In this document: positions 30,219 to 49,334 of the stretch, piece by piece
How positions within the stretch are numbered: the first letter of the stretch is position 1
How the letters are laid out: every line of letters starts with the position of its first letter
From: Lentilactobacillus diolivorans DSM 14421
GTDB taxonomy: Bacteria; Bacillota; Bacilli; Lactobacillales; Lactobacillaceae
Assembly (NCBI RefSeq): GCF_001434255.1
Contig: NZ_AZEY01000014.1
Span: forward strand, 1 to 49,334
DNA length: 49,334 nt
Direction: 5' to 3'
The notes under the pieces: model-generated
What the model saw: the letters and a program-made list of their open reading frames with translations, nothing else
Databases searched by the model: none
Told to the model about the DNA's origin: nothing
Translations under genes and position numbers: made by a program

Positions 30219-31226
30219 TTATTTGATTTTAGGAAAACTATCACGATAAATAATATCTCCGGGAACTGTAATGATATTAGTTCCAACAAGTGAATGATTG
30301 ATCTGATCTCGTAGCAATCGGACAGCAGCGTTTGCAAGCTCATTTGTTGGGATTTCAATTGAAGTAATTGTAGGAGATTTTATTTTGGTGACCATTAAAT
30401 TATCAAAACTAACGACGCTGACATCATTGGGAACATCAATCTGATTATCACTTAAGGTATCAATCAATCCCCTAGCAATTAAATCATTTAAAGCGATAAT
30501 CCCATTTGGAAAAGAATAGTTGGTTTCCTTTTTTCGGTTTAGCAAGTATTGAGCGGCCTTTTTACCATCTTCAATCGTGAGGCCAACGTTAATAATATCA
30601 GGAACCAATGTATGTTTTTTTGACCACTCATAGTAGGTTGATAATCGCAGATCAATCAGATTATTCCACGTCTTTCCGGATTGGTTAATTCGTTCAATCG
30701 ATCCACCAACAAACGAAATGCGATTTCGATGGTCAATGATGAAGTCATCGAGTATTTTATTTGTAATTTGATCAAAGTTACTTTTAACTTGGTTTGTTTT
30801 AGGAACACTGGTATTGTCATCAACTAAAACAAAGGCATTAGAAATTCGTTTCATTCTTTTAATGGCGGCCGTTGTGAATGGCCCGATAACCAAGACCCCA
30901 TGTAATTTATCTAGTTGGGCTAAAGCAACGTTATCTGGTAACCAAATTGTTTTCGCAACCTTTAGATTATTCTGACGACAATAAATTAGAATATTTTGAA
31001 GTAAATCTGAAAAATAAGGGTCTTGAGAAACCCTTTTTTGGCTCAGAGCTAATAAAATCACGATTTCATAACGGGATGTTTTTCTTTGATATCCTGTTTT
31101 TTTGATAATCGATTCAATTCGTTGACGCGTTGTGGTTGAAATCCGAAGTGAGGGGTCTTGATTAATAACTCGCGAAACCACGCCTGGAGAGACGTCAGCT
31201 AATTTTGCAATTTCTCTAATCGTCAT
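30219..31226 (-). CDS. LacI-family transcriptional regulator
   Basis: A 335-aa regulator. The N-terminal helix-turn-helix with hinge helix (MTIREIAKLADVSPGVVSRV, then NQDPSLRISTTTRQRIE) is followed by a sugar-binding domain of the periplasmic-binding-protein type, ending with FDNLMVTKIKSPTITSIEIP. I start at ATG 31226, where the HTH begins; AAAGGA lies about 11 bases upstream. It is divergent from the GH43/transporter operon. Two near-identical palindromes with core AGCGCT lie in the shared promoter region and are probably its operators. The inducer is likely a xyloside, xylose or a related sugar. Confidence 0.9.
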   Translation of the reverse strand: MTIREIAKLADVSPGVVSRVINQDPSLRISTTTRQRIESIIKKTGYQRKTSRYEIVILLALSQKRVSQDPYFSDLLQNILIYCRQNNLKVAKTIWLPDNVALAQLDKLHGVLVIGPFTTAAIKRMKRISNAFVLVDDNTSVPKTNQVKSNFDQITNKILDDFIIDHRNRISFVGGSIERINQSGKTWNNLIDLRLSTYYEWSKKHTLVPDIINVGLTIEDGKKAAQYLLNRKKETNYSFPNGIIALNDLIARGLIDTLSDNQIDVPNDVSVVSFDNLMVTKIKSPTITSIEIPTNELANAAVRLLRDQINHSLVGTNIITVPGDIIYRDSFPKIK

Positions 31227-31314
31227 GTTTAAAGGATCCTTTCGCTGTTTACCAATGTTTACCAACCCAAAAGACCGTGCTTAATGATCTTTTTATGGGG
31301 GTCAGAAGCCCTTT

Positions 31315-31328
31315 AGATAGCGCTTTCA
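31315..31328. promoter_or_regulatory. Putative LacI operator (also cre-like)
   Basis: AGATAGCGCTTTCA; its complement TGAAAGCGCTATCT also fits most of the cre consensus. It pairs with the perfect palindrome at 31422, about 107 bases away, a spacing that would allow looping. Confidence 0.65.
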
Positions 31329-31421
31329 CCTTTCGGCGTGGTTCTATCATAAACATTTATTTACTGTTCGTCTAGTTTATCTTATTGTTTAGCTTTTTAA
31401 AATAATTTATATTCTAAGTAA

Positions 31422-31435
31422 TGATAGCGCTATCA
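31422..31435. promoter_or_regulatory. LacI-type operator palindrome
   Basis: TGATAGCGCTATCA is a perfect 14-base palindrome with the central CG typical of LacI-family operators, 23 bases before the GH43 start. Confidence 0.75.
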
Positions 31436-31458
31436 GATTGACGAAGAGAGGAAATGTT

Positions 31459-33114
31459 ATGACAGACTATTCAACAATTAAAAATCCAATTTTGCCTGGT
31501 TTTACCCCAGATCCAGCAGTTTTAGGGGTTGGCGATGATTATTATTTAGCAACTTCAACCTTTAACTGGTATCCGGGAGTTCAAATTTTTCACTCAAAGG
31601 ATTTAGCTCATTGGGAGCTGCAAACCTACGTTTTTAATGATCCAGACTTTTTACATTTAGCAGGAACTGATACACCTGCCGGAGTGTGGGCACCGGATTT
31701 AACATATGATAAACGAACCGGTAAATATTGGATTGTGATGTGTCAAATGCACAACATGAATGGTAATTTGTTTGATCAGGATAACTATGCCGTTTATGCA
31801 GACTCAATTAACGGCCCTTGGTCAAAGCCAATTTATTTAAATTCGATTGGTTTTGATTGTTCGCTATTTCATGACGATGATGGTAAGCACTGGGCGGTGA
31901 CCTTGGAATGGGATACTCGAAAGGGGTATCAACATCCAGGAGCAATCGTTTTAGAACAATTTGATCCAGACCAGGGCAAGTTGGTTGGCCCAACGAAACG
32001 GATTAGTCGCGGCGGCACTGATCGCGGATGTTTGGAAGCCCCTCATATTTATAAACATGATGGTTATTACTATTTAATGACTGCAGAAGGTGGTACTGGA
32101 TACGGTCACGGGGTAGTTGTTCAACGGTCAAAAACAATCGATGGTCCCTATGAATCAGATCCACAGAATCCGATTATTACTTCCACACCGTATCGTTACT
32201 TTAGAAGAGGGGACCCGGATTCATTGAGATTGGATCTTTATAATCCAAAAGCACCGCTTCAGAAATGTGGTCACGGTTCCTTGGTTCACACTGCTACCGA
32301 TGAGTGGTACGTCGTTCACTTATCTGCACGACCTTTACCCGGAACGACTAATTGTACCCTTGGACGTGAAACCTCAATCCAAAAAGTTGAGTGGACCGAG
32401 GAAGGCTGGTTAAGAATGAAAGCCGGCGGCACATTAGCACAGCCGACAACTGAAGGAATGAAAGGGATTCAAGTATCTGATAAATCTCAAGCAGCAGGTG
32501 TGAATGCCGATTTTTCTACTGGAAAAATTGATCTTCATTTAATGAGTCCTTACGGGCCACGAACAGAAGAATGGTGTTCATTAAAAGAGCGCTCAGGTTG
32601 GTTGAGAATTCATGGACGACAATCATTCTTCAGCCAATTTCAAGTGTCACTGTTAGCTTCCCGAATCGATTCATTCAAGTCAATCGTTTCGACCAAGGTT
32701 GAATTTAACCCGATTCACTATTCACAATCAGCCGGGCTAACACTTTATTACGATAATAGCAATTGGCTTTTTGCCCGTCTCTATCATTCAGAGACATTAA
32801 ATAGTACCGCATTGGCAATCATGAAAGGTGAAAAGGGTAATAAGGATGAATACATTCTTGATCGAGTTGCCTTACCGGGAGGAAAAGCTGAACTAAAAGC
32901 TGAAATTGATTATGGCCAAGTTCAGTTCTTCTACCGAACAAATGAAAATACTGAATGGCGCAAATTAGGTGATTTAATTGACATTTCATTTATGTCCGAT
33001 GAACAAACTGGTGGCTTTACTGGATTAATGGGTGGTATCGGTACTTGGGATGCCTATCGCCGACAGTCATTTGCGGACTTTAAATACTTCAAAATTACAC
33101 CAAAAAATGAATAA
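31459..33114 (+). CDS. GH43 beta-xylosidase (XynB-like), intracellular
   Basis: A 551-aa glycoside hydrolase with no signal peptide. The GH43 five-blade propeller carries the catalytic trio Asp18 (GFTPDPAV), Asp133 (GFDCSLFHDDDG) and Glu193 (CLEAPH). The long C-terminal beta-sandwich (from about 330) is the beta_xylosid_C2-type domain of XynB-like enzymes. Such enzymes cut xylo-oligosaccharides in the cytosol to xylose. Some relatives are arabinofuranosidases, so activity is inferred. I start at ATG 31459 behind GAGAGGAAA; the open frame reaches 31438. It is the first gene of an operon with the transporter 34 bases downstream, controlled by the divergent LacI protein. Confidence 0.9.
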   Translation: MTDYSTIKNPILPGFTPDPAVLGVGDDYYLATSTFNWYPGVQIFHSKDLAHWELQTYVFNDPDFLHLAGTDTPAGVWAPDLTYDKRTGKYWIVMCQMHNMNGNLFDQDNYAVYADSINGPWSKPIYLNSIGFDCSLFHDDDGKHWAVTLEWDTRKGYQHPGAIVLEQFDPDQGKLVGPTKRISRGGTDRGCLEAPHIYKHDGYYYLMTAEGGTGYGHGVVVQRSKTIDGPYESDPQNPIITSTPYRYFRRGDPDSLRLDLYNPKAPLQKCGHGSLVHTATDEWYVVHLSARPLPGTTNCTLGRETSIQKVEWTEEGWLRMKAGGTLAQPTTEGMKGIQVSDKSQAAGVNADFSTGKIDLHLMSPYGPRTEEWCSLKERSGWLRIHGRQSFFSQFQVSLLASRIDSFKSIVSTKVEFNPIHYSQSAGLTLYYDNSNWLFARLYHSETLNSTALAIMKGEKGNKDEYILDRVALPGGKAELKAEIDYGQVQFFYRTNENTEWRKLGDLIDISFMSDEQTGGFTGLMGGIGTWDAYRRQSFADFKYFKITPKNE

Positions 33115-33148
33115 AGACATCAAAAGATGCCGAGAGGAATGAATTAGT

Positions 33149-34402
33149 ATGGCAGAAAATAGTTCAACACTTGGGGTAACAAATGATCAACAACCCAAGC
33201 GTCCAATTAGACTAGGATTTTCATTGTTAATTGGTCCTGCATGTTGGTTGGGACCCTATGTTGGTGTTTCAGCAACTTTGTTACCAGCTAAGATTGGTCA
33301 ACTTGCTCCGGCGGACAAAGTTCCGTTAGTCGCAGCCGCATCGGCCATTGCCATGACGGTTGCCACGATCGCCAATATCATTGCCGGAGCCTTATCAGAC
33401 GTTACTCGTTCTAAGCATGGTAAGAGAACGCCGTGGATTGTCATTAACTCAATTTTATCTGCACTATGTTTAGTTGGTTTATCAATGGCAACCAGTGTCA
33501 CAATGCTTTTGGTTATTTGGGGAATTTACCAAGCAGTTCTGAATGCGGTTGTGGCGCCAATGATTGCACAGATTTCCGATAGAGTTGCGCCAAAATGGCG
33601 AGGGACGATTTCATCATTTTATGGCATTGGACAGGCTTTTGGTAACTATGGTTCGGGAATTATTGCTTCACAATTTATTGATACAACGGCAGTGGGAATT
33701 CAAGTTTTGGCGACCTTTGCTTTAGTTGGTGGGTTACTTTCAGCCTTCTTAGCTAAGGAACCTTCTAATTTGGATGAACCAAAAGTTAAATTTGATGCGT
33801 CAACGCTTAAACAGAACTTTATGTTTCCAACAAAGGGCGCTCGCGATTATTACTTGGCTCTGGCAGGTAAAATGTTGATGGTTACTGGTCAATACGTAAT
33901 TGTTGGGTACCAACTTTATATTTTTACAGATTATATGAATCTAAGTAAAGGCGCTACGGCAGCTTCAATTGCAACAATGTCTTCCATTCTTATGGTTACA
34001 GGTATTTTATTTACTGCTTTAGCTGGTCCTATTTCTGACAAGATTCATCGCTTAAAAGCACCTGTTGCACTTACAACTATTTTGCTGGGTGTTGGTGCGT
34101 TCTTCCCATTCTTTTCTCCTAAACCATGGACGATGTTCGCATATGCCTTGGTTGCTGGAATCGGAATGGGTGCCTATAATGCCGTTGATCAAGCCCTTAA
34201 CGTTGCTGTTTTGCCAAATCCGAATTCTGCAGCCAAAGATTTAGGGATTATCAATATGGCAAATACCTTAGGACAAGTCTTCGGACCAATGATTGCGGCG
34301 GTTGCTATTTCGACAATGGGTTATAAAGCAATGTTTCCAGTTGAAACAATTATTTGTGTCGTTGGTGGTTTACTTATCATGTTGATTAAACGAGTTAAAT
34401 AA
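33149..34402 (+). CDS. MFS sugar transporter
   Basis: A 417-aa, 12-helix major-facilitator protein. A loop with SDVTRSKHGKRTPWIVIN, typical of GPH/SLC45-like sugar:cation symporters, follows helix 2. It starts ATG behind AGAGGAATGAATTAGT, 34 bases after the GH43 gene. The context suggests it imports the xylo-oligosaccharide or glycoside that GH43 cleaves. It has a paralogue whose first 52 codons lie at the window's right end (49178), sharing the LxGPxCWxGP-type opening. The strong terminator at 34505 closes the operon. Confidence 0.88.
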   Translation: MAENSSTLGVTNDQQPKRPIRLGFSLLIGPACWLGPYVGVSATLLPAKIGQLAPADKVPLVAAASAIAMTVATIANIIAGALSDVTRSKHGKRTPWIVINSILSALCLVGLSMATSVTMLLVIWGIYQAVLNAVVAPMIAQISDRVAPKWRGTISSFYGIGQAFGNYGSGIIASQFIDTTAVGIQVLATFALVGGLLSAFLAKEPSNLDEPKVKFDASTLKQNFMFPTKGARDYYLALAGKMLMVTGQYVIVGYQLYIFTDYMNLSKGATAASIATMSSILMVTGILFTALAGPISDKIHRLKAPVALTTILLGVGAFFPFFSPKPWTMFAYALVAGIGMGAYNAVDQALNVAVLPNPNSAAKDLGIINMANTLGQVFGPMIAAVAISTMGYKAMFPVETIICVVGGLLIMLIKRVK

Positions 34403-35103: not shown

Positions 35104-35180
35104 TGTTTTGGACCACTAATGCAAGCGTAATCTCAGGTCATTTTGGTTTCGTTTTCTCATAAGATGAAAACATCCTGGGA

Positions 35181-35209
35181 TTGATATATTAATATCCACA
35201 TGATAGAAT
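35181..35209 (+). promoter_or_regulatory. Promoter of the GH59-like gene with AT-rich operator
   Basis: TTGATA and TAGAAT are 17 bases apart. The -35 box is part of TTGATATATTAATAT (35181-35195), a motif repeated at three other promoters of the island. It could be the binding site of the GntR regulator at 42972. Confidence 0.7.
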
Positions 35210-35215
35210 ATTGCC

Positions 35216-35229
35216 TGTAAGTGCTTACA
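35216..35229. promoter_or_regulatory. cre-like palindrome at the GH59-like gene promoter
   Basis: TGTAAGTGCTTACA is a perfect palindrome except for its T/G centre and lies where transcription should begin. It resembles the cre sites at 40100 and 47334 (TGTAAGCGGAATCA) but lacks the central CG on one strand. Confidence 0.5.
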
Positions 35230-35270: not shown

Positions 35271-38200
35271 GTGAGAAAATCCAAGTTATGGGTTTCAGCC
35301 GTATTGAGTACTGCAACATTAATAGGAATAACCGCGTTTGGTGTTACTCAAGCTCAAGCGGATACAGCAAGAAATGTGACTATCGATGGAAGTACGGTGG
35401 ATACCAATCAAGCTAATACTTATAAGGGATTTGGAATGGTTTCAGCAAACGGGACTTCTCGTTTGCTTCTTGATTACAAGGCTGAAAATCCAGCGAAGTA
35501 TTGGGAAATTATGAATCGGTTATTTAACCCTAATACGGGAATTTTGGACATGATTAAGGTAGAAATGGGTGCCGATGCAAATACATCAACTGCTTCAACT
35601 CCTGCCACAATGCGATCTGTGGATGAGCCTGCAAATACACTTCGTGGTTGGGATTGGCACATCGTAGCTGATGCTAAGAAGATCAATCCAAATTTAAAAG
35701 TTGATATGTTACGCTGGTCCGAGCCAAAATGGGTGAGTGATGCCGAAAAGCAGGGTGTAGAGGCGGGGTATGCAGCTCGCTATAAGTGGTATAAAGAAAC
35801 AATTGACTCCGCTTACAAAACATATGGTATTAAGATGGACTATGTCAGTGCTGATAAGAATGAAACAAGAAATGTTGAACCAGAGTGGATTAAGTATTTA
35901 TCTGGTCATTTAAAAAAGGAAACTAGTCCATATCCAATGAATGGAATTAAGATTGTTGCCTCGGATCAAATCGGTGGTACAGATTTGCCTGGTAAAATGT
36001 TAAAAGACAAGGCATTAATGGATGCAATTGATGTTGTTTCAATGCATTATCAAGTTCATGGTGATGCGGACATTCGTGAGGTTAACAAGCAGGGTAAACA
36101 GATTTGGTACTCAGAGGCATTGGCTCCGACAACATTTGCTGAATATCGGCTTAACAGCAATACTCCTAAAAATGGGTTAGGAGGCACACATGGTGCCATT
36201 GATGTTGCGAATTCATTTATCAATATGTATCAGTCGACTACCAGTTTAAATAATCAGTCTGAAAATTCATCCGGCTACATGACGCGTTATGAATTTCAAC
36301 CGGCGGTTAGTTCATTCTATGATGGTAGCCAATATTCAACCAAGGAATTGATTGATGCCCAAACACCTTGGTCGGGAAATTATTATGTTGATGCTGGGGT
36401 TCCAGTTACGCAACAATTTACTAACTTTATCAAACCAGGATGGGAATATATTAAAAGTGCCTCAGAAGGTGACGGTCAAGGCGCAAATGGACTGACGAAT
36501 ACAACTGATAATCATTTAACATTAACTGATTCAAGCAAAAAAGACTATTCGGTTGTTATTACTAACGATAGTGATTCGCCAAGAGGTTATAACTTCACAT
36601 TAAAAAATATGAAAGATCCAAGTGCCATTTTGCACGCTTGGAAGACAACTGGTCCTAAATCAGGTGAGAAATATGATGCAAATTGGCTAAAGAATGTTGG
36701 CAACGTCACACCAGCTAAAGCTAATAATGGTACTTATACATTTAACTACACAGTTGACCCCAATAGTGTTGTTACTTTGTCGACCACAACAGGACAAAGT
36801 AACTATCAACCCAACGACAATCAAAAGCAGTGGAAAGATGATCAGCTATCTTTGCCGTATGCAGATAATTTCGATTACACTGACTCAAAATATCAAAATT
36901 ATCGAGATACGTCAGTAATTGATTCTGCAAACCAAGGGTATTTAAGCAGTCGAGATGGTACGCCTCGTTACTTTGATGACATGGGTGGCGCTTTCCAGGT
37001 GGTCAAGTCAGACGATTCGGGCCATAATAATGTCCTGCAAGGAATGATTACCGCTGCAACTTTTGTTGGGGGATGGAATCCAGAGCCCGGTAATGATACT
37101 GTAATGGGAGATAATCGATGGGCCAACTATCAAGTTAGTTCTGATTTTAAGCTTGACACCAAAACGCCTGTTACAAATTCAGACCCAGATTTTGCTAGTT
37201 TACTGGCTCGAAATTTAAAGTCTGGAGGCAATAATGATTCTGGTTATGCATTGAAGGTTGATAAAAGTGGTCAGATTAGTCTTAATAAAGACGGAAAATC
37301 TTTGAAAACGATAACAATTCCTAGCTTCAAGGCTGATCAATGGCATAATTTTGCTCTTAAAGTTGTTGGGAATACCATTACTGGCTATTTAGATAATAAG
37401 GAGATTGTGACCTATACAGATAATGATTCACCGTATAGTACGGGAAAAATTGGCTTAAGCAGTGGTTATTATCACACTCAGTTCGATAATCTGAAGATTG
37501 ACCCTATTGATGGTCAGGCTCAAAATGTCCAACGAATCGATGACCTTGATTCAGCAATTAATTACAGTGGTGATTGGACACATGCTGTTCCGGGAAGTGG
37601 TGATAGTAATGGTGCTGAAGGGAACGTCTATAACCGTTCAGCCTCCTCTTCAAATAGTGGTGCATTTACTTTTACAATGAATGGTAATGAATTCAATTTA
37701 ATTGGCAAAAACAATTCAGCGCATCTTCAAATCACCGTTGATGGTCAAGTAATTAAAGATGATGCCATTGCCAATAATTCAATTGATCGTGGCACGGCCT
37801 ATAGTCTTGCCAATTTGAGTAATGGTAAACATACGGTGAGGGTTGCAGTGAAAAGTGGAAACTTTTTACTCGATGCGATTGACGAGGCTCAATCACCAGC
37901 TTCGTCAACAACAGCTGGTGGGACAAGTACACCAAATCCACCAACAACAGAAATTAGTTCGTCTTCTAATAGTTCAGAATCATCTGTAACCAGTTCAAGT
38001 ACGTCGAATTTTAGCTCAAGTGCTACTTCTTCATCCTCTAGTTCAACAAATGGGTCAACATTGGTGACTAAACCAGGTCAATTAAAAGTTGGCGAAGCTG
38101 TTTACGCAGTTAAAAAAGTCTATCTATATAAAGATGCTAACTTCAAGACTAATAACCGGATTACTGTTTATTCAAAGCAACGACGGGTTAACCGACCTAT

Positions 38201-38558
38201 GTTCGTTGTTCAAGGATTTGCCCGTTCGTCAAATGGAACACTCCGCTATCAAGTCAAAGATGTAAATCATTATCGTAAAACCAATGGTAAAAGAGGTTAC
38301 ATCACTGCTAATAGGAAGTATATTGTTCCTGCTTATTACGCAACGATGCCAAAATCTAAAGTAAATACGATTATTGCTAAGAAGGGTGTTAATGCATACA
38401 GGACAGTCAGTCTTAAAGGTAAAGCCAAACATTATAAACAAGGTACCAAATTAAAGGTTGAAGCGATTAAGAAATATCATCTGACTTCGCGGTATCGATT
38501 GGTTAATGGCTATTACATCACTGGTAATAAAAAGTTAGTTATGCAAAAAAACTATTAA
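35271..38558 (+). CDS. Secreted GH59-like glycosidase with lectin-like and DUF5776-like domains
   Basis: A 1095-aa secreted protein. GTG 35271 follows AAGAAGGATCAAAA; the open frame reaches 35211 but without a ribosome site. Signal peptide is about 1-32 (cut near AQA-D). The catalytic part (about 35-410) resembles the galactocerebrosidase family GH59: YKGFGMVSANGTSRLLLDY, KVEMGAD, acid/base Glu198 (KNETRN), nucleophile Glu282 (IWYSEALAP), DAQTPWSGNYYV and KPGWEYIKS. These match human GALC in order and spacing. A beta-sandwich and a GALC-type lectin domain (about 525-745) follow, then a further beta-sandwich (about 750-880), a Ser-rich linker and a C-terminal DUF5776-like region ending LVNGYYITGNKK. 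Known GH59 enzymes remove beta-galactose. In this locus the substrate is probably a plant glycan rather than a lipid. It is held to the wall, not LPxTG-anchored. Confidence 0.85.
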   Translation: MRKSKLWVSAVLSTATLIGITAFGVTQAQADTARNVTIDGSTVDTNQANTYKGFGMVSANGTSRLLLDYKAENPAKYWEIMNRLFNPNTGILDMIKVEMGADANTSTASTPATMRSVDEPANTLRGWDWHIVADAKKINPNLKVDMLRWSEPKWVSDAEKQGVEAGYAARYKWYKETIDSAYKTYGIKMDYVSADKNETRNVEPEWIKYLSGHLKKETSPYPMNGIKIVASDQIGGTDLPGKMLKDKALMDAIDVVSMHYQVHGDADIREVNKQGKQIWYSEALAPTTFAEYRLNSNTPKNGLGGTHGAIDVANSFINMYQSTTSLNNQSENSSGYMTRYEFQPAVSSFYDGSQYSTKELIDAQTPWSGNYYVDAGVPVTQQFTNFIKPGWEYIKSASEGDGQGANGLTNTTDNHLTLTDSSKKDYSVVITNDSDSPRGYNFTLKNMKDPSAILHAWKTTGPKSGEKYDANWLKNVGNVTPAKANNGTYTFNYTVDPNSVVTLSTTTGQSNYQPNDNQKQWKDDQLSLPYADNFDYTDSKYQNYRDTSVIDSANQGYLSSRDGTPRYFDDMGGAFQVVKSDDSGHNNVLQGMITAATFVGGWNPEPGNDTVMGDNRWANYQVSSDFKLDTKTPVTNSDPDFASLLARNLKSGGNNDSGYALKVDKSGQISLNKDGKSLKTITIPSFKADQWHNFALKVVGNTITGYLDNKEIVTYTDNDSPYSTGKIGLSSGYYHTQFDNLKIDPIDGQAQNVQRIDDLDSAINYSGDWTHAVPGSGDSNGAEGNVYNRSASSSNSGAFTFTMNGNEFNLIGKNNSAHLQITVDGQVIKDDAIANNSIDRGTAYSLANLSNGKHTVRVAVKSGNFLLDAIDEAQSPASSTTAGGTSTPNPPTTEISSSSNSSESSVTSSSTSNFSSSATSSSSSSTNGSTLVTKPGQLKVGEAVYAVKKVYLYKDANFKTNNRITVYSKQRRVNRPMFVVQGFARSSNGTLRYQVKDVNHYRKTNGKRGYITANRKYIVPAYYATMPKSKVNTIIAKKGVNAYRTVSLKGKAKHYKQGTKLKVEAIKKYHLTSRYRLVNGYYITGNKKLVMQKNY

Positions 38559-40114: not shown

Positions 40115-40212
40115 TAAATTGGTGATTGATTAAAAGATAAACTGAATCAAGTTGAGCTAGTTTTAACATCATTGAAATATGTGAATTAAAGTGTTATTCT
40201 TCTATTGTGTCT

Positions 40213-40240
40213 TTAGAATATTAGTACATTAATATATCAG
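40213..40240. promoter_or_regulatory. Paired AT-rich operator motifs
   Basis: TTAGAATATTAGTA is identical to 49007-49020. The following ATTAATATATCAG is the complement of the TTGATATATTAAT motif seen at 35181, 43779 and 47361. Likely binding site of one regulator. Confidence 0.6.
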
Positions 40241-40396
40241 TGTGCAAAAAAATGACCGACCCAAACGATAGGTTGAGACTTTTTTCAGAAAATAGTTTTT
40301 TCCTAAAACTATCTCGATTTGTATTCAATATGTCACAAAAGAGGATAGGTTTGAACAGTCGGTTTTTGCATATTTAATCCTAGGAGGGGTTATCTT

Positions 40397-41800
40397 TTGA
40401 AAAAGAATGTTGTAGTCAAATCTTCCAATAGCCATGATTTTCCACGGTATCTAACAATTACCGTTTTTATTGCAGCTCTTGGTGGACTGTTATTCGGGTA
40501 TGATCAAGGTGTTATGTCCGGTGCTGTTACGTTTATTGGTCATACGTTTGCTATGTCAAGCGGATTATTAGGGTTCATTTCTGGTTGTATTCCTTTGGGG
40601 GCAATGGTTGGTTGTTTAATTGCCGGATACTTGGCTGATCGAATTGGCAGGAAAATCATGATGTTCGTTTCCGCAATATTGTTTGCGCTTTCGGGGGTTG
40701 GCTGTGCATTTGCCGGTAACGTTGCAATTTTAATTATTTCTCGTTTAATTGGTGGTTTAGGAATTGGAATGGTGTCTACACTGGTTCCTTTATACATTGC
40801 TGAAATTTCTCCAAAACAAGTTCGTGGAAAAATGGTTGGCAGTTATCAACTAGCAGTTGCATCAGGAATATTTGTTGTTTATGTGATTAATGCGTTAATT
40901 GCTAACACACATACGATTGCTTGGAATCAAGATATTGGTTGGCGGATGATGTTCCTAGCGGGCATTGTTCCTGGCATCCTTTTCTTTGTCCTATTATTTT
41001 TCATTCCGGAAAGTCCACGATTCTTAGTTAGCAAAAATCAAGATGAACAAGCAAAAAGGATTATGGGAAAAGTGAGTTATAATTCTGAACAAACAATCTC
41101 GACTGAAGTTAACGAAATCAAAAAGACAATTCATTCAGAGACTTCAAACGGTACATTTCTTAAAGAGTTATTCAAAAAGGGGACACGAATGGCATTATTC
41201 ATTGCTGTCATGTGTTCCGTGTTTCAACAATTAACGGGGGTCAGTGCGGTAGCTTATTATGCACCAGTTATTTTTAAAAATGCTGGTGCAGGAACCAACG
41301 CGGCCATGATTGAAACGGTGGCCATCGGATTGGTTAAGGTATTATTTGTTCTATTCTTTATGGGAATGATTGATAGACTCGGACGAAAGCGACTGCTCAA
41401 ATGGGGTGGATATGGAATGGCAGCTTGTATGCTATTGCTGGCGTTCTGTTTCGACCAAACTTCCATGTCAAAAATCTTTGATGTATTTATCATCGCTTTA
41501 ATCATCATCCATACGAGTATTTTTGAAATGTCCTGGGGCGGTGGTGCCTGGGTCTTGATTTCTGAAATGTTTCCAAATAAAATTCGTGGTCGAGCTTCAT
41601 CAATTGCGTCATTCGCATTATGGGCCGCAACTTACGCAGTTACTCAATTATTTCCAGTGATGCTCGATAAGTTAGGAAGTGTTTGGACATTTGTTATTTT
41701 TGGCATTTTCTGTATTGCGATGGGGATGTTTATTCAGCTGTTCTTCAGTGAGACCGCTGGGAAGTCATTGGAACAAATTCAAGAAGATTCAAAGAAATAA
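40397..41800 (+). CDS. Sugar-porter family MFS symporter
   Basis: A 467-aa, 12-helix sugar:proton symporter. It starts at TTG 40397 behind GGAGGGG. Sugar-porter signatures are GYDQGVMSG in helix 1, DRIGRK after helix 2, PESPRFLVSK after helix 6, QQLTGVSAVAYY in helix 7 and ETAGKSLEQIQ at the end. Relatives carry xylose, arabinose, galactose or glucose. In this locus a pentose, galactose or glucuronide is plausible. It carries a cre site and the island's AT-rich motifs upstream. Confidence 0.9.
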   Translation: MKKNVVVKSSNSHDFPRYLTITVFIAALGGLLFGYDQGVMSGAVTFIGHTFAMSSGLLGFISGCIPLGAMVGCLIAGYLADRIGRKIMMFVSAILFALSGVGCAFAGNVAILIISRLIGGLGIGMVSTLVPLYIAEISPKQVRGKMVGSYQLAVASGIFVVYVINALIANTHTIAWNQDIGWRMMFLAGIVPGILFFVLLFFIPESPRFLVSKNQDEQAKRIMGKVSYNSEQTISTEVNEIKKTIHSETSNGTFLKELFKKGTRMALFIAVMCSVFQQLTGVSAVAYYAPVIFKNAGAGTNAAMIETVAIGLVKVLFVLFFMGMIDRLGRKRLLKWGGYGMAACMLLLAFCFDQTSMSKIFDVFIIALIIIHTSIFEMSWGGGAWVLISEMFPNKIRGRASSIASFALWAATYAVTQLFPVMLDKLGSVWTFVIFGIFCIAMGMFIQLFFSETAGKSLEQIQEDSKK

Positions 41801-41819: not shown

Positions 41820-42558
41820 TTTTCAATTAACATAGATGTGATCGAGACTGGTTTGGACGGAGGGACAGCAATAACTGGAAGAAGAGCGTTAATCCATCCA
41901 CTAAGGTTGTAATGGTAATAAGTTCACTGGATAAGGTCGTTATGTTAGATTAACAGCGACTAAGGTTATTGGCGGTCAAGATGGGCTAGTGGAATTTCAA
42001 GTTTATGTTAATGATATTTCTAATAGTGGTTTCACAACTTCAAGCAGTTCGGTAGATTCATCGACGACTAATTTAGCCCAAACGGTTCAATCTACTAGTC
42101 CCTCCACAGCTGGTTTCTCAAGTTCTTTAACAGAAACCGGCTTATCTGGGGCTTCAGATGCTTTAGAACCTTCGACTACTCTTGATCGAGGGGCAGTTAG
42201 GATTGGGACCTATATTTACGCGGATAAATCTGTTAATATTCAAAATGTTACGGGATGTCAAATTCAATGCTGGGAAATTAAGGTATAACTTTCGTGATTT
42301 TGACGGTTGGCTATATCACTACAAAAAATAACTATGTTAAACTATTTTATTATTCAAGTCTGCCAGTTTCCAAAACTATTAAGGTTATTGCCAAATATGG
42401 AATTCATTCATATCGACAAGCCTTGTTGACAAATGAAACTGGTTATTATCGCGTAGCAGATTGTATTTCAGAATAGACCAAAGAATAGGACTCGTTACCG
42501 ATTAACAAACGGCGCTTATATTTGCGCAAACAAGAAATTTGTTAAACCACCTTTTTGA
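41820..42558 (+). pseudogene. Decayed C-terminal part of a secreted glycoside-hydrolase-like protein
   Basis: Translation of changing frames gives the end of an F5/8 type C (CBM32-like) fold (NGNKFTG-stop-GRYVRLTATKV, LVEFQVYVNDIS, about 41920-42022). A Ser/Thr linker (42023-42180) follows, then a DUF5776-like region: RIGTYIYADKSVNI, KLFYYSSLPVSKTIKVIAK (42320-42400), and RTRYRLTNGAYICANKKFV up to the stop at 42556-42558. At least three frameshifts and several stops are present, and the catalytic part is absent. The layout matches the tail of the GH59-like protein. It is probably what remains of a second secreted enzyme after the deletion or rearrangement that brought in the sugar porter. Confidence 0.75.
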
Positions 42559-42971: not shown

Positions 42972-43637
42972 TTAACGATTTTCTTCAAAGTAATCTGGAA
43001 ACTTTTTCAGTAGGTTGTTTTTTTCGGCCAGCATCAAGTTGAGATGGTTAAAAGCACGACGACCTGCTAAGGATTTGTCATGTTTCTTGATGGCTTCAAC
43101 AATGCCCTCATGTTGTTGCAAGATTTTGTCAACGGGCATTTCGGTTTGCTGAATTCGCAAGAAACGATAACGGTCAAGTTGAAGCGTGAGAGCCTTTAAC
43201 CAGTTCCAAACTTCATCTTTATCAGTCGCTGTATAAAACATTTTATGAAAGTCATTGTCTAGGTAAAAAAAGTCTTCACTATTTTTTTGTTTGGTAGCTA
43301 GTTCTTGCTTGCTGATTAGATTCTTGGCGTCCAAAATATTCGATTCACTCATGTTGATGGCTGCTTCCTTGACAACGTCACGTTCAACGCTTTGACGAAC
43401 AAAACGCGCATTTAACGCACTTTTTAAACTAATTTTGGTCACGTATGTCCCACTTTGTGGAACCGTTGCCATTAAGCCATCGTTTTTCAATCGTAAAATG
43501 GCTTCCCGTACAGGAGTTCGGCTGATCTTTAGACGTTCAATTAGGTCTCTATCCTGAATGCGTTCTCCAGGTTTGAACTTGAGTTTGAGAATGTCATTTA
43601 AAATAGTTTGATAAGCAACTTCGTTTAGGCTTTCCAT
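42972..43637 (-). CDS. GntR-family regulator, FadR/FCD type
   Basis: A 221-aa regulator. The winged helix-turn-helix at about 5-65 shows KFKPGERIQDRDLIERLKIS and RTPVREAILRLKNDGL. The C-terminal FCD domain (about 80-205) has the Asp/His positions for a metal and ligand (DNDFHKMFY, HEGIVEAI). Regulators of this branch control uronate genes (UxuR/ExuR-like). Start ATG follows GAGGGA. It is divergent from the GH115 alpha-glucuronidase gene with operator-like motifs between, so it probably senses glucuronate, fructuronate or mannonate and governs the island. Confidence 0.9.
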   Translation of the reverse strand: MESLNEVAYQTILNDILKLKFKPGERIQDRDLIERLKISRTPVREAILRLKNDGLMATVPQSGTYVTKISLKSALNARFVRQSVERDVVKEAAINMSESNILDAKNLISKQELATKQKNSEDFFYLDNDFHKMFYTATDKDEVWNWLKALTLQLDRYRFLRIQQTEMPVDKILQQHEGIVEAIKKHDKSLAGRRAFNHLNLMLAEKNNLLKKFPDYFEENR

Positions 43638-43744: not shown

Positions 43745-43760
43745 TTGACAGCGGTTTCAA
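43745..43760 (-). promoter_or_regulatory. cre site between GntR and GH115 genes
   Basis: TTGAAACCGCTGTCAA on the minus strand fits the catabolite-response consensus at every defined base. Confidence 0.7.
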
Positions 43761-43778
43761 TGAGTGATAGATTTGCAA

Positions 43779-43790
43779 TTGATATATTAA
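43779..43790 (+). promoter_or_regulatory. AT-rich operator-like motif upstream of GH115
   Basis: TTGATATATTAA matches the start of the GH59-like gene motif at 35181. Confidence 0.5.
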
Positions 43791-43919
43791 GATTCTAGAT
43801 TAGTCAACCAAGATTGAATTTATTAATTTCGATAATAAATTTAGTTGCCGTGGATGGGGTTGGCAAAGTAGAAAATGTATTTTTAGTTCGTTCAAAACAA
43901 ATGAAAGGACGCTATGTAG

Positions 43920-45947
43920 TTGAGAACTAAATTTTTTATTTCAAAAGATACCAATGTTCAAACGAATTTCACTAACGACGTTCTTCGGAATGCAGCAGAA
44001 ATTTTGCAGAGAGATATCCGAAAAACAGTCACCAATCATAAATCTCACAATACCATTATATTGAAGGTGGATCTGGCTGCCAACTTGAAAGGTGACGCTT
44101 TTCAAGTTGTTTTTCCAGCAATTGATCGAATACTTGTTATTGCCAAAACTGAATTAGGAGTAATGTATGGTGCTTTGGCAATTTCTAAGGATGTCTTGGG
44201 AATTGATGATTTCTGGTTTTGGTTGGATAAGATGCCGAAATCGGTGCCATACGTGGAATTTCCAAAAGTTGAATCATTGAAAATGCCTGATTATCATGTT
44301 AAATACCGTGGCTGGTTTGTAAACGACGAACTATTAATTAATCACTGGGAGTATCGAGAATCAAATCAGTACGTTTGGATGCTAATCTTTGAAACATTGT
44401 TGCGCTGTGGTGGCAATATCGTCATTCCTGGAACGGATACCAATAGTCATTTGCATTGGCCATTAGCTTCTTCAATGGGTCTCATGATCGCCCATCACCA
44501 TGCGGAACCACTGGGTGCTGACATGTTTTCCCGAGTTTATCCAGATCTTGAAGCATCTTATTTGAAGCATCCTGATTTGTTTAAGAAAATTTGGCAGGAT
44601 AGTATCGATCGCCAGAAAGGAAGTAAAATTCTCTGGAATATCGGTTTTCGAGGACAAGGAGACCGACCATTTTGGGCTGATGATGATCATAATTACACAG
44701 AAGAAGATAAAGCTAAAGTCATCAATTCAGTGATTCAAACCCAGTATGAAATGGTTAAAAAAGCTGACCCTGATGCAATGTGCTCAATGAATATTTATGG
44801 TGAATCAACCGGCTTATATAATGAAGGGTTACTTAAAATACCAAAGGATGTTATCCAGATTTGGGCTGACAACGGCTATGGCAAGATGGTTTCACGTCGG
44901 CAGGGAAATGATGATCCACGAAGTGCCGTCCTTTCTTCAAAAAACGATCAAATTGCTCAAGGAATTTACTATCATGTGGCATTCCATGATTTACAAGCAT
45001 CCAATTTCTTAACCTTGTTACAGATTGATCCACACTATGTTGCCGATCAATTAATGCAGGTTCGACAGGCTGGAATGGATGATCTGGTGATTGCCAATAC
45101 CGGAAGCATTAAGCCACATATTTTCTATTTACGTCTGATTGCACAAACTTGGCGCAGTAATTATAAGCTGGGATCCAATTCAGATATCTTAAATGAATAT
45201 GTTGGGATCTATTACGAGTCACATCTAAGCGAAATTGCTGCACTTTACACCCGATATTTCCAGACAACCTTCAATTATCGGCATTTTGAAGATCAAAAAG
45301 CTGGTGACGAATTCTACGTTTATACACTGAGAAAGGCGATTGCAACCTGGCTGGCTAAACGTGATCAAATGCCGGAAATGGAGTGGCTAACCGGGACTAA
45401 TCAATTTGCCGCTCAGCTTAGACAAATTGACGACTTAATTAAGCCACATGTTCAACCATTTATTAAGCTGGCAACTGACACTACCGTTTTGATGAAACGA
45501 TTGCCGGCAGACGATGCAGGTCGTTTATACAACGACTTGTGGCTAAGTATTGCCATTCACACGTACTCAATTAAAGCGCTTAAACTACTGATTGACGCGT
45601 TTAAATCATACGATGGCCATGATTTTGTTGGTGCATTTTTGAAAGTTGATCAAGCCAAAAAGAATATGCAAACGATGACGAGTCGATGGTTGAATAACCC
45701 ATTAGCCAAGTGGCGTCATTTCTTTGATAATGATTGCTATACCAATATCACATTAGCCGCCCAAACCTTAGCGACTTTGGAAAATGTCATTCGGATTACT
45801 TGCGATGGGCCGGATGAGGATCAATGGGAACGGAAATATTTGATGCGTAAGAGCGATGCAAAAGTCATGTTATTGTCGAACACGCACAAAGCATACAGTG
45901 ATGATGAAATTGCATCTCGTCTAGAGGGTAATGACGAGTCACTATAA
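43920..45947 (+). CDS. GH115 alpha-glucuronidase, intracellular
   Basis: A 675-aa protein starting at TTG 43920, ten bases after AAAGGA; no ATG is available. No signal peptide. GH115-like features are an N-terminal alpha/beta domain (to about 130; TELGVMYGALAIS), then VKYRGWFVNDELL, the GLMIAHHHAEPLG block with His192-194 and Glu196, and GFRGQGDRPFWADD. GH115 enzymes release (4-O-methyl-)glucuronic acid from xylan or from arabinogalactan. Being cytosolic, this one should act on imported oligosaccharides. It lies next to GntR, KdgK and UxuA, which take the released uronate onward. It is shorter than many GH115 enzymes, which often exceed 800 residues. Confidence 0.88.
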   Translation: MRTKFFISKDTNVQTNFTNDVLRNAAEILQRDIRKTVTNHKSHNTIILKVDLAANLKGDAFQVVFPAIDRILVIAKTELGVMYGALAISKDVLGIDDFWFWLDKMPKSVPYVEFPKVESLKMPDYHVKYRGWFVNDELLINHWEYRESNQYVWMLIFETLLRCGGNIVIPGTDTNSHLHWPLASSMGLMIAHHHAEPLGADMFSRVYPDLEASYLKHPDLFKKIWQDSIDRQKGSKILWNIGFRGQGDRPFWADDDHNYTEEDKAKVINSVIQTQYEMVKKADPDAMCSMNIYGESTGLYNEGLLKIPKDVIQIWADNGYGKMVSRRQGNDDPRSAVLSSKNDQIAQGIYYHVAFHDLQASNFLTLLQIDPHYVADQLMQVRQAGMDDLVIANTGSIKPHIFYLRLIAQTWRSNYKLGSNSDILNEYVGIYYESHLSEIAALYTRYFQTTFNYRHFEDQKAGDEFYVYTLRKAIATWLAKRDQMPEMEWLTGTNQFAAQLRQIDDLIKPHVQPFIKLATDTTVLMKRLPADDAGRLYNDLWLSIAIHTYSIKALKLLIDAFKSYDGHDFVGAFLKVDQAKKNMQTMTSRWLNNPLAKWRHFFDNDCYTNITLAAQTLATLENVIRITCDGPDEDQWERKYLMRKSDAKVMLLSNTHKAYSDDEIASRLEGNDESL

Positions 45948-46037: not shown

Positions 46038-46070
46038 GCTTCGGGTACAACCAGTGAGTATCTGATATAA

Positions 46071-46179: not shown

Positions 46180-47199
46180 TTATCGATTCATTGCTGATCC
46201 ACCCGTTGCGGCAAGTTGGGTGATCTCATTATCAAAGGCGAGGTTAAAATCACCGGAGATTGTTAGTTTGGTGACACTGGCTGCAATACCGTAATTCACC
46301 GTTTTTTGCAGGTCGAATTGATTCATAATACCGTGCATGATTCCCGCGGCAAAGGCATCCCCACCGCCAACACCTTCGTAAACTTGAACGGAGTGGACCG
46401 GGCTTTCATAAAACGTCTGATCATTAAGTAACATTGCCGTCCACTGACTTGATTCAACAGAATAGATGTTTCGAAGAACAGATCCGATTGTCTCTAGGTT
46501 AGGGTATGTGGCAGCCAATTTAAGCATCGCTTGCTTAAATTGCTGTTTTTGGGCGATACCGTCAGCCATGTTGCCATCGAACGCTTTAATACCAAACGAG
46601 GATTCAAAATCTTCATCATGAGCAAAAACAATTGAGACGTAAGGCATGATCATGCTTGAAAACTTTTGAGCATCTTTGGTTGACCAAAGTTTTCCGCGAA
46701 AGTTGGCATCATAGACAACTTTGATGCCGTGCTTTTTACAGTAAATAGCCGCATCTAAAACGGTATCTTGAAGTTGAGGTGATAAGGCTGGCGTAATGCC
46801 AGAAACGTAGAAATAATCAGTGGTTTTTAATAGCCTTTTCCAATCATATTCATTATCATTAGAGGTTGCAAACGAACTATGGGCACGATCATAAACAACG
46901 TTGGTTCCTCTAACACTAGTCCCTTTTTCAAAGTAGTAAGTGCCGATTCGTTCACCGCCGCGAAGAATTTTTGTGGTGTCGACACCATATCCACGAAGTC
47001 GAAAAAGAGCTGACTCCCCGAGGATGTTTTGAGGCAGCTTGGTGATGTAGCAACTCTGATCGCCCAGTAGTGCTAGCGAAACGGCAACGTTAGCCTCGGC
47101 ACCGCCGAATGATGCTTCAAATGAAGTGGCTTGAACGATCCGAGTACAACTATTAGGTTTGAACCGCAGCATTAATTCTCCCAATGATGTTAATTTCAT
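46180..47199 (-). CDS. kdgK: 2-keto-3-deoxygluconate kinase (PfkB family)
   Basis: A 339-aa sugar kinase of the PfkB/ribokinase family. Family signs are GELMLRFKP at the start, FGGAEANVAVSLALLG (about 32-47) and the catalytic-base motif GVGGGDAFAAG near the C-terminus. KdgK phosphorylates 2-keto-3-deoxygluconate, the product of mannonate dehydratase, to KDPG. The divergent partner UxuA supports that substrate. Start ATG behind TAGGAG. Fructokinase activity is a less likely alternative. Confidence 0.88.
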   Translation of the reverse strand: MKLTSLGELMLRFKPNSCTRIVQATSFEASFGGAEANVAVSLALLGDQSCYITKLPQNILGESALFRLRGYGVDTTKILRGGERIGTYYFEKGTSVRGTNVVYDRAHSSFATSNDNEYDWKRLLKTTDYFYVSGITPALSPQLQDTVLDAAIYCKKHGIKVVYDANFRGKLWSTKDAQKFSSMIMPYVSIVFAHDEDFESSFGIKAFDGNMADGIAQKQQFKQAMLKLAATYPNLETIGSVLRNIYSVESSQWTAMLLNDQTFYESPVHSVQVYEGVGGGDAFAAGIMHGIMNQFDLQKTVNYGIAASVTKLTISGDFNLAFDNEITQLAATGGSAMNR

Positions 47200-47348: not shown

Positions 47349-47354
47349 TGTGTA

Positions 47355-47373
47355 TTGTATATTAATATATCAA
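47355..47373. promoter_or_regulatory. AT-rich palindromic operator between kdgK and uxuA
   Basis: TTGTATATTAATATATCAA is a near-perfect palindrome centred on ATATTAATAT and contains the complement of TTGATATATTAAT. Candidate GntR-regulator site serving both genes. Confidence 0.65.
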
Positions 47374-47505
47374 TTTGTCAAATTAATGATGGCTAACCGT
47401 TGACGGTATCTTTTGGTTATGGTAAGTTGTGAATGGCTTTTATTAAAATATATTAAAATACCAGTTAAGTTTTACTTTATTTAATCAATCCACAAGGAGG
47501 AAACA

Positions 47506-48579
47506 ATGAGAAATCTAAAAATGGGATTTCGCTGGTTTGGCGCTGATGACGACCCAATTTCATTAGCAGAAATTCGACAAATTCCGCAAACTAAGCAAGT
47601 TGTCGGGGCATTATTTGACGTACCAGTGGGGGAAGTTTGGCCCCAAGATAAAATCGATGCATTAAAAAAGCAGGTGACTGATGCCGGCCTTAAGCTTGAA
47701 GTCATCGAATCAGTTAACATTCATGATGATATTAAGATCGGCTTGCCGAGCCGGGATAAGTACATCGCTAATTACATTCAAACCATCAAGAATCTTTCAA
47801 AAGTGGGAATTAAGGTAATTTGCTACAACTTCATGCCAGTCTTTGATTGGTTAAGAACTGATCTACATCACCAATTAGCCGATGGTTCTAATGCAATGAT
47901 GTATGAAGAGAGCAAGCTGCCCAAGGATCCAGAAGCCTTAATGGCTGAAATGAATTCGGGATCAAGGGGGTTCAGTTTACCTGGTTGGGAGCCTGAACGT
48001 CTGGCTGCTTTAAAACAGTTATTTGCTGCATATAAAGATGTCACGGCAGATAAGCTACGGGAAAACTTTAAGTATTTCTTGGATGCTATTATGCCAACTT
48101 GTGAGAAATATAATGTTCGAATGGCGATTCATCCGGATGATCCACCAAAGCCATTATTTGGTCTTCCAAGAATCTTTAAGAATCGGGAAGATATGCTGAA
48201 AATCGAACAACTACATGAATCACGATACAATGGGTTTACAGTTTGTACCGGAAGTCTTGGCGAGAATCCTGAAAACGATTTACCTGCAATCATTCGGGAA
48301 TTTGTCCCCAAGGATCGGGTGCCGTTTATGCATGTTCGAAATATTAAGTATGTTGGTAAGGATGCTTTTCATGAATCAGCTCATCCATCATCAGAAGGGT
48401 CACTTGATATGTATGAGATCATGAAGGCACTTCATGATACTGATTATGATGGTTATATCCGTCCCGATCATGGTCGGAACATTTTTGGTGAAGATGGTCG
48501 TCCAGGCTATGGATTATACGACCGAGCGCTTGGGATTACTTATTTAGAAGGCTTGTGGGAGGCCCTAGAGAAGTCTTAG
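47506..48579 (+). CDS. uxuA: Mannonate dehydratase
   Basis: A 357-aa TIM-barrel enzyme that dehydrates D-mannonate to 2-keto-3-deoxygluconate in glucuronate catabolism. It opens with MGFRWFGADDDPISLAEIRQ and shows the metal-binding-type blocks NFMPVFDWLRTDL, RMAIHPDDPPKP, HVRNI and DGYIRPDHGR. The length is normal for UxuA. Start ATG with AAGGAGGAAAC. It is divergent from kdgK with a shared operator and cre region. Genes for uronate isomerase and fructuronate reductase are not in the window and may follow. Confidence 0.95.
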   Translation: MRNLKMGFRWFGADDDPISLAEIRQIPQTKQVVGALFDVPVGEVWPQDKIDALKKQVTDAGLKLEVIESVNIHDDIKIGLPSRDKYIANYIQTIKNLSKVGIKVICYNFMPVFDWLRTDLHHQLADGSNAMMYEESKLPKDPEALMAEMNSGSRGFSLPGWEPERLAALKQLFAAYKDVTADKLRENFKYFLDAIMPTCEKYNVRMAIHPDDPPKPLFGLPRIFKNREDMLKIEQLHESRYNGFTVCTGSLGENPENDLPAIIREFVPKDRVPFMHVRNIKYVGKDAFHESAHPSSEGSLDMYEIMKALHDTDYDGYIRPDHGRNIFGEDGRPGYGLYDRALGITYLEGLWEALEKS

Positions 48580-48646
48580 AATATAAGAAAAAATGGAGCT
48601 CGAACAAGCGTTAAAACGTTAGCTTGTAGCGTTCTGATTGGACAAT

Positions 48647-48694
48647 AAAAGTCTCGTAAAACCAGTGTTATTGCTGATTTTACGAGACTTTTTT
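48647..48694 (+). terminator. Terminator of uxuA
   Basis: AAAAGTCTCGTAAAA pairs perfectly with TTTTACGAGACTTTT, followed by further T. Its core, AAAACCAGTGTTATTGCTGA, is almost the same as the hairpin at 26476. Confidence 0.9.
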
Positions 48695-48961
48695 GAGCCT
48701 TACTATTCTTTCGACTAACTGTCCAGAGGTACTTTTATTTTGAGGTGTTGCTAAGACAATAATATGCCCAAAAGTCAGGTCACTGGGTGCGATTAAATAA
48801 GGGATTTTCACCAATTATTATTTATTGGCGGAACTGTTAGATGCGGATAAACAGATGAATACTTGAGATTAATAAATAAGTTCACAATTAAGTTTGATGA
48901 TTTATTTAATTGATATCGTTGGATTTTAATGATTTTGAGTCATTTTTTATGAAAAATCAAG

Positions 48962-48977
48962 TTGACAGCGCTTTCTA
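48962..48977. promoter_or_regulatory. LacI-operator-like or cre-like site
   Basis: TTGACAGCGCTTTCTA shares the AGCGCT core and most flanks with the LacI operators at 31315 and 31422. It misses one base of the cre consensus. Confidence 0.55.
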
Positions 48978-49006
48978 TAAGTGTTAAATTCTATTTGTCT
49001 AGTATA

Positions 49007-49020
49007 TTAGAATATTAGTA
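49007..49020. promoter_or_regulatory. AT-rich operator-like motif
   Basis: TTAGAATATTAGTA, identical to 40213-40226, about 160 bases before the transporter start. Confidence 0.55.
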
Positions 49021-49177
49021 TTTTTGATTGTGTGAACTTTCACCTGATTAATTGATAAAACTTAAAATGGCTGAAAGTGTCAACACGTTTTGAAGGGATG
49101 TGGCAGATGATACAACAGTATTTTGTATCAGTTCGTGTATTAAAAATTAAGAAATTGTAAATTTAGGAGTGAAAAAA

Positions 49178-49334
49178 ATGGCAAAAAATAATGATCCGAA
49201 AGAAAAACCAGTTTCATCTGTCGTTGGTGAAATTACCAATGCCCGCGTAAAGGATTCACAACAGCCTAAATTACCTTTGATGGTTTCGTCGGCTATGTTT
49301 TTAGCACCACTTTGCTGGTATGGGCCAATTGGTT
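49178..49334 (+). CDS. Sugar MFS transporter, 5' end only (cut by window)
   Basis: The first 52 codons of a transporter. ATG 49178 follows TTAGGAGTGAAAAAA. A hydrophilic N-terminus of about 30 residues is followed by the first helix (LPLMVSSAMFLAPLCWYGPIG). This resembles the opening of the transporter at 33149 (IGPACWLGPYVG), so it is a likely paralogue. Its upstream sites place it in the uronate regulon; a glucuronate or aldouronate importer is the natural guess. The rest is outside the window. Confidence 0.7.
   Translation, partial: MAKNNDPKEKPVSSVVGEITNARVKDSQQPKLPLMVSSAMFLAPLCWYGPIG

What the first reader, a model, noticed from the sequence alone, without database searches (positions are those of the whole stretch)
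30219..49334. A glucuronic-acid glycan utilisation island combining GH43, GH59-like and GH115 enzymes with uxuA/kdgK
Within 19 kb lie a LacI regulator, a cytosolic GH43 beta-xylosidase with transporter, a secreted GH59-like enzyme, a sugar porter, a GntR/FCD regulator, a cytosolic GH115 alpha-glucuronidase, KDG kinase, UxuA and another transporter. GH115 acts on glucuronic-acid-capped xylan or arabinogalactan, GH59 removes beta-galactose and GH43 removes xylose. The mix would fit a GlcA-capped plant arabinogalactan or glucuronoxylan fragment. GH59 and GH115 are not usual lactobacillus sugar genes. The specific substrate is inference.
Basis: partly seen in the sequence, partly recalled or inferred. 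Interest (0 to 1): 0.85.

Follow-up and report, generated by a model that had tools for sequence, protein, structure and literature searches.

The report
Glucuronate-glycan regulon in a Lentilactobacillus
This stretch of a lactic acid bacterium's genome holds sugar-cutting enzymes, transporters and breakdown genes that appear to be switched on together by glucuronic acid, probably to eat glucuronic-acid-capped plant side chains; the kinds of gene are known, but I found no study of the combination.

Summary
All listed genes are present. They form two control units. LacI-GH43-MFS has its own LacI-type palindrome. GH59, sugar porter, FCD/GH115 and KDGK/UxuA share a near-palindrome, ATTRATATATYAAT; its 13-base core occurs exactly three times in the 3.26-Mb genome, all here, before GH59, GH115 and UxuA/KDGK. 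In 44 other loci 12 of 12 hits lie at uronate or transporter gene starts (8 of 12 without two labels added late). I read it as a hexuronate operator that places GH59 and GH115 in one regulon with the uxu genes. Substrate is open: cytosolic GH59 relatives sit with GH2 beta-glucuronidase and DUF2264, the closest GH115 relatives with DUF2264 and LacLM, and no GH10/GH11 was found, which favours a GlcA-bearing galactan side chain (arabinogalactan or pectic). Against it, most characterised GH115s act on xylan, possible members of this GH115 clade were in a set mostly active on xylan, and some secreted GH59s sit with xylan enzymes. GH59 and GH115 are minority, not unique, lactobacillus genes. New variant of a known kind.

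The parts
30219..31265 (-). LacI-family repressor of the neighbouring GH43 unit (separate from the uronate regulon)
   Evidence: Pfam LacI + Peripla_BP_3
31422..31435 (.). perfect palindrome TGATAGCGCTATCA, probable LacI operator in the LacI/GH43 intergenic region
   Evidence: palindrome scan; operator role inferred
31438..33114 (+). GH43 beta-xylosidase with GH43_C2, no signal peptide seen by eye
   Evidence: 1yrz, E 3e-129
33149..34402 (+). MFS transporter, paralogue of the 'MFS20' transporter of GH59/uronate clusters
   Evidence: 45% to the L. parakefiri gene
35180..35193 (.). operator ATTGATATATTAAT (exact), overlapping the -35 of a promoter-like site 35181-35209 (TTGATA-17-TAGAAT)
35216..35229 (.). 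TGTAAGTGCTTACA, cre-like site (CcpA consensus recalled)
   Evidence: palindrome scan
35271..38558 (+). secreted, probably wall-bound GH59-like glycosidase, 1095 aa: signal peptide (by eye), GH59 barrel, lectin-like GH59_C, Ser/Thr-rich linker, DUF5776; catalytic Glu pair E218/E302 (numbered from the longer ORF at 35211) conserved
40228..40241 (.). operator, 1 mismatch (ATTAATATATCAGT), downstream of promoter-like site 40172-40200
40397..41800 (+). sugar porter (XylE-like MFS)
42972..43637 (-). GntR/FCD regulator, candidate reader of the shared operator
   Evidence: role inferred from its divergent position and from sites beside FCD genes in some relatives
43745..43773 (+). GH115 promoter-like site TTGACA-17-TAGATT with a cre-like sequence over the -35
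   Evidence: sequence
43778..43791 (.). operator, exact 13-base core (14-base form has 1 mismatch), just downstream of the GH115 -10
43920..45947 (+). GH115 of the F-[HY]-D-L-Q clade, 675 aa, no signal peptide by eye, shorter than the solved GH115s
46180..47199 (-). KDG kinase (PfkB)
   Evidence: (kinase half of a KDPG aldolase/sugar kinase fusion model, 362 bits, below that model's cut-off of 700)
47361..47374 (.). operator, exact, in the KDGK/UxuA intergenic region, between -35 and -10 of a promoter-like site on the KDGK strand (47381-47354)
47506..48579 (+). UxuA mannonate dehydratase
   Evidence: 386.5 bits, uxuA cut-off 199.55
48962..48990 (+). promoter-like site TTGACA-17-TAAATT with a cre-like sequence; a degenerate operator-like TAGTATATTAGAATATTAG follows
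   Evidence: the degenerate site is below the match threshold
49181..49334 (+). first 51 codons of an MFS transporter of the GH59-cluster type ('MFS20'), cut by the contig end

Best explanation
The stretch from GH59 to the contig end (35.2-49.3 kb) is a hexuronate regulon that has taken in two glycosidases. Likely working: (1, inferred) the secreted GH59-like enzyme, held at the cell wall by DUF5776, cuts beta-galactosyl or similar residues from a glucuronic-acid-bearing plant side chain (arabinogalactan or pectic galactan type). (2, inferred) The MFS at 49181 and the sugar porter take up released GlcA-oligosaccharides or sugars. (3, inferred from family) GH115 in the cytosol removes alpha-linked (4-O-methyl-)GlcA. 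(4, established pathway) GlcA goes through UxaC and UxuB (not in the window; both on contig C77, uxuB with a 1-mismatch operator), then UxuA and KDG kinase, to KDPG. (5, site shown, regulator inferred) The GntR/FCD protein sits on ATTRATATATYAAT at the GH59, sugar porter, GH115 and KDGK/UxuA promoters and lets go when a uronate metabolite is present; cre-like sites suggest CcpA repression on top. The LacI-GH43-MFS genes are a separate beta-xyloside unit next door.
For: Shared site: core ATTGATATATTAA exact 3 times in the whole genome, all in this window before GH59, GH115 and UxuA/KDGK; one of the 22 one-mismatch sites is before the sugar porter; 25 sites in all against 10 for the reversed-pattern control. 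Beyond the window: 12 of 12 hits of ATTRATATATYAAT (<=1 mismatch) in 44 other loci (806 kb, 3 of the hits on this genome's C77) lie at uronate/transporter gene starts, which make up 5.0% of that sequence; 60 shuffled palindromes gave a mean of 0.37 there (most 4) and 1.87 elsewhere. uxuB on C77 has it between a promoter-like stretch and its start. Catalytic residues: GH115 N135, D136, E137, R244, D248, E295, D317, H352 in 79 of 79 (roles of D136, R244, D248 by their wtsAgu115A counterparts, PMC9063842); GALC E182/E258 = GH59 E218/E302. Galactan context: GH2 in 19 and DUF2264 in 11 of 21 GH59 stretches (20 of 22 other genomes were fetched); the own GH2 is over the beta-glucuronidase cut-off (693 vs 544 bits; closest solved structures are beta-glucuronidases); DUF2264's closest solved relatives are glucuronate dehydratases; GH78, GH127 and arabinofuranosidase-like genes in 4 of 21 each. 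GH115's closest relatives (L. sunkii, L. parakefiri, 66-67%) sit with DUF2264, LacLM, UxuA and FCD. Metal-site Asp407 is absent in 79 of 79, as in arabinogalactan-active BtGH115A, which is also the best profile match (107.5 against 92.2 bits and below). No GH10 or GH11 match in the genome.
Confidence: 0.57

Rival explanations
1. Glucuronoxylan/aldouronate island: GH115 removes MeGlcA from xylo-oligosaccharides, GH43 the xylose, and GH59 trims galactose from complex glucuronoarabinoxylan; the uronate regulon is the same.
For: A GH43 beta-xylosidase is adjacent. Eight of nine characterised GH115s act on xylan, and 20 of 22 new candidates, perhaps including two of this clade, released MeGlcA from beechwood xylan. 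A GH59 is in the xyl-doc cluster of R. cellulolyticum, and one is numbered next to the GH11 xylanase gene in Paenibacillus JDR-2 (Pjdr2_4664/4665). Several lactobacillus GH115 loci carry SASA or SGNH esterases (8 loci with the SASA cluster), as an acetylated xylan would need.
Against: GH43 has a separate LacI-type site. No GH10 or GH11 match in the genome. The xylan-contact Tyr408 and metal-site Asp407 of wtsAgu115A are replaced in 79 of 79. Among 87 neighbour proteins of GH115 in other Firmicutes, PL11, GH42 and GH88 each occur 3 times, and no xylan-specific family is among the 25 of 88 families shown.
Confidence: 0.3
2. Chance neighbours: unrelated sugar genes on one contig; GH59 and GH115 serve different glycans and only UxuA/KDGK are linked to glucuronate.
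For: Separate transcription units, transposase-like debris (by eye) and a broken DUF5776 gene between them; no match over 37% to the secreted GH59 in the other 23 genus genomes searched.
Against: The shared promoter site, with its exact core found nowhere else in the genome, and recurring GH59-uronate and GH115-uronate neighbourhoods in relatives.
Confidence: 0.12

Closest known systems
GH115 alpha-glucuronidases (BtGH115A, wtsAgu115A, BoAgu115A)
   Different: 675 aa, only PF15979 of the GH115 domains found in 20 of 20; Asp407 replaced and Tyr408 -> Phe, followed by [HY]DLQ, in 79 of 79
GH59 galactocerebrosidase (3zr5)
   Same: barrel match E 1.5e-28; both catalytic Glu, W135 and N181
   Different: bacterial, secreted, DUF5776; T93 -> S, R380 and W291 align to T and Q
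Hexuronate regulons of lactic acid bacteria (UxuR and ExuR are named in a table of PMC3616900; one passage seen)
   Same: uronate genes under a shared site with a candidate FCD regulator
   Different: reaches a secreted GH59 and a GH115; I saw no published site to compare with
Aldouronate utilisation cluster of Paenibacillus JDR-2 (GH67, GH10, GH43, ABC transporter; PMC4765114, passages)
   Same: uptake and intracellular removal of GlcA
   Different: GH115 not GH67, MFS not ABC, no GH10

Membership tests
GH115 | sequence match to the family domain | tested here: met
   PF15979, 196 bits against cut-off 27
GH115 | catalytic-site residues (Asp303, Arg299, Asp177 of wtsAgu115A) | tested here: met
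   D248, R244, D136 in 79 of 79; mapping by the alignments
GH115, wtsAgu115A-like xylan site | Tyr408 contact to the +1 xylose and metal-site Asp407 | tested here: not met
   F355 in 79 of 79; S/T/A/G at 354, never D. BtGH115A has Ser and Tyr there, so this does not by itself make the enzyme arabinogalactan-type
GH115 | alpha-glucuronidase activity | not testable with these tools
   needs purified protein
GH59 | domain match and two catalytic Glu | tested here: met
   PF02057 E 6e-80; E218/E302
GH59 | beta-galactosidase-type activity | not testable with these tools
   R380 and W291 counterparts uncertain
Hexuronate (UxuR-type) regulon | one shared site at uronate genes | tested here: met
   absent beside several FCD genes of relatives
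Hexuronate (UxuR-type) regulon | FCD protein binds that site and answers to a uronate | not testable with these tools
   inferred from gene order and family
GH43 beta-xylosidase | close match to solved GH43 beta-xylosidases over the full length | tested here: met
   1yrz E 3e-129, residues 13-553 of 558

The most novel reading that the evidence does not exclude
The Firmicutes GH115 clade with F-[HY]-D-L-Q in place of the wtsAgu115A D-Y pair is a separate subfamily that acts on alpha-GlcA (or 4-O-methyl-GlcA) of non-xylan side chains (arabinogalactan, rhamnogalacturonan), and lactobacilli run it in a glucuronate-triggered regulon with a wall-bound GH59: a lactobacillus route for plant arabinogalactan or pectic side chains.
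Probability: 0.3. Interest if true: 0.65.

Novelty: new variant of a known kind. Interest (0 to 1): 0.45.

Why it matters
If right, some lactobacilli are equipped to use glucuronic-acid-capped plant side chains, a food source mostly credited to Bacteroides and bifidobacteria (recalled), and one operator sequence names the set. It also marks a large GH115 clade (374 encoded relatives found, the best 80 kept) whose substrate can be tested directly, where the single arabinogalactan claim for GH115 is questioned (PMC9063842).

Tried and rejected
GH115 + GPH operon as in relatives: rejected for this genome, no GPH orthologue. Structure comparison to choose between xylan- and arabinogalactan-type GH115: no help, all GH115 entries tie. 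Neighbour-family tally in other Firmicutes: 87 proteins chosen by hand, mostly the longer ones, from 151 candidates of L104-L158 (112 of them 299 aa or more; count); only weakly informative, no family exceeds 3 and only 25 of 88 families are shown. Literature: GH115 + Lactobacillus (30 papers, 20 listed), GH59 + Lactobacillus (19 papers, 15 listed), arabinogalactan + Lactobacill + gum arabic (19 listed), GH59 + arabinogalactan (13 listed) and Lentilactobacillus + arabinogalactan + glucuronic (2 listed): by title and abstract start none describes such a cluster; only openly licensed papers are covered. Fold of the 120-aa neighbour family: no PDB match with E <= 0.001, middling model (pLDDT 77), so no claim. 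One search used 79 of 81 sequences; two (L143, L153) fall outside its 550-800 aa length filter.
Full report
Observation. The window is contig C51 of a 3.26-Mb, 109-contig genome. The last transporter is cut by the contig end: the last 56 bases of C51 and C45 are identical, and so are the first 56 of C22 and of reversed C77, and pieces of this MFS gene lie at all four ends. The simplest reading is a two-copy gene that broke the assembly.

Two control units. The LacI/GH43 intergenic region has the palindrome TGATAGCGCTATCA. GH59, sugar porter, FCD/GH115 and KDGK/UxuA carry ATTRATATATYAAT instead. In the window TTGATATATTAA has three exact places and one with 1 mismatch, all in front of these genes; 31 of the 35 matches in that scan have 2 mismatches. 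Genome-wide the 13-base core is exact only at these three places; with one mismatch allowed there are 25 sites, against 10 for the reversed pattern, so most of the one-mismatch sites may be background. Promoter-like sequences lie with GH59 (-35 covered), GH115 (site just after -10), KDGK (site between -35 and -10) and the sugar porter (site downstream); such matches as a whole are not enriched (70 against 63.9 expected).

The site in relatives. In 44 loci other than the window (806 kb; four are other contigs of this genome), all 12 hits lie at starts of uronate or transporter genes, a space of 5.0% of the sequence; 60 shuffled palindromes averaged 0.37 hits there (highest 4) and 1.87 elsewhere. 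Without two labels added after seeing hits, 8 of 12 count. The loci are related, so hits are not all independent. An exact site precedes the transporter-uxuB-uxuA-uxaC run of Schleiferilactobacillus shenzhenensis (L068). In this genome uxuB on C77 has a one-mismatch site before its start. Five FCD neighbourhoods and one sugar porter of relatives had no site at two mismatches.

GH115. 675 aa, no signal peptide by eye. 21 of 301 sampled Lactobacillaceae genomes match. In 23 of 27 stretches (window, 25 lactobacilli, one Enterococcus) a GPH transporter is present; here it is not, and the genome has no orthologue. Catalytic residues are invariant; the wtsAgu115A pair Asp407/Tyr408 is replaced by a small residue and Phe in 79 of 79 (residue roles from passages and section 3.2 of PMC9063842). 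BtGH115A, the arabinogalactan-active member, shares the small residue but keeps Tyr. The clade profile fits BtGH115A best (107.5 bits; 92.2 for wtsAgu115A), but the fold comparison ties all GH115s. The model is confident (pLDDT 91.6). Pfam finds PF15979 in 20 of 20 and no second GH115 domain. Against a non-xylan role: 20 of 22 new GH115s in PMC13059095 released MeGlcA from beechwood xylan, and a P. terrae and a Konateibacter-like candidate may be of this clade (passages and sections 3.1.1 and 3.2 seen).

GH59. No match over 37% to the secreted form in the other 23 genus genomes searched. Relatives are at 33-38%. Of 21 GH59 stretches fetched (own C22 and 20 of 22 other genomes), 20 GH59 ORFs start without a signal-peptide-like stretch by eye and one is broken; a further, 1525-aa GH59 with FIVAR repeats lies in L190. 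GH2 is present in 19, DUF2264 in 11 and a LacI in 17 of 21 (counted). The own GH2 is over the NCBIfam beta-glucuronidase cut-off. DUF2264's closest solved relatives are glucuronate dehydratases. GH78, a GH127-type and an arabinofuranosidase-like gene occur in 4 of 21 each (the last two score below the NCBIfam cut-offs). Rha, Ara, GlcA and Gal are the sugars of type II arabinogalactan side chains (recalled). Against this, GH59s in Ruminiclostridium and Paenibacillus are listed with or beside xylan genes (passages only).

Xylan test. The genome gives no GH10 and no GH11 match and three GH30; the one on C77 is closest to solved GH30 entries named glucosylceramidase, with weak matches to GH30 xylanases, so a xylanase role for some GH30 is not excluded.

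Judgement. A hexuronate regulon that includes GH59 and GH115 is well supported by the shared site. The substrate is less sure: a GlcA-bearing galactan side chain (0.57) over xylan (0.3). The families are known; the combination was not found in my literature searches: new variant of a known kind.

Noticed in passing
29616-29972 (+); alignment A3 members in L079-L103: A 118-aa protein of an unnamed family of about 120 aa (no Pfam match, no PADLOC match): 8 copies in this genome, 14 of 301 Lactobacillaceae genomes, 11 of 15 of the genus. Several copies sit beside GPH or MFS20 transporters in GH115/GH59 clusters. The AlphaFold model gives no PDB match with E <= 0.001.
   Followed up: partly
L066:4982-7054 and related genes (6 lactobacillus loci): AraC-type regulator of about 690 aa whose N-terminal half matches GH43, mostly beside GPH-GH115: a sugar sensor perhaps made from a glycosidase.
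   Followed up: no
G000:C6:79491-80130: Fragment of a second GH115 (70-78% identical pieces, residues 421-633 only) near a contig end.
   Followed up: partly
42309-42543: Remains of a DUF5776 protein between sugar porter and FCD; transposase-like debris by eye at about 38940-39700.
   Followed up: partly
26155-26216 (-): Fluoride riboswitch match (34.1 bits, cut-off 34) in front of a P-type ATPase gene 23825-26104, an unusual pairing as far as I recall.
   Followed up: no
8566-8807 (-): T-box leader upstream of a 464-aa ORF 7092-8486.
   Followed up: no
14265-18354: KxYKxGKxW-signal protein next to an 887-aa LPXTG-anchored protein.
   Followed up: no
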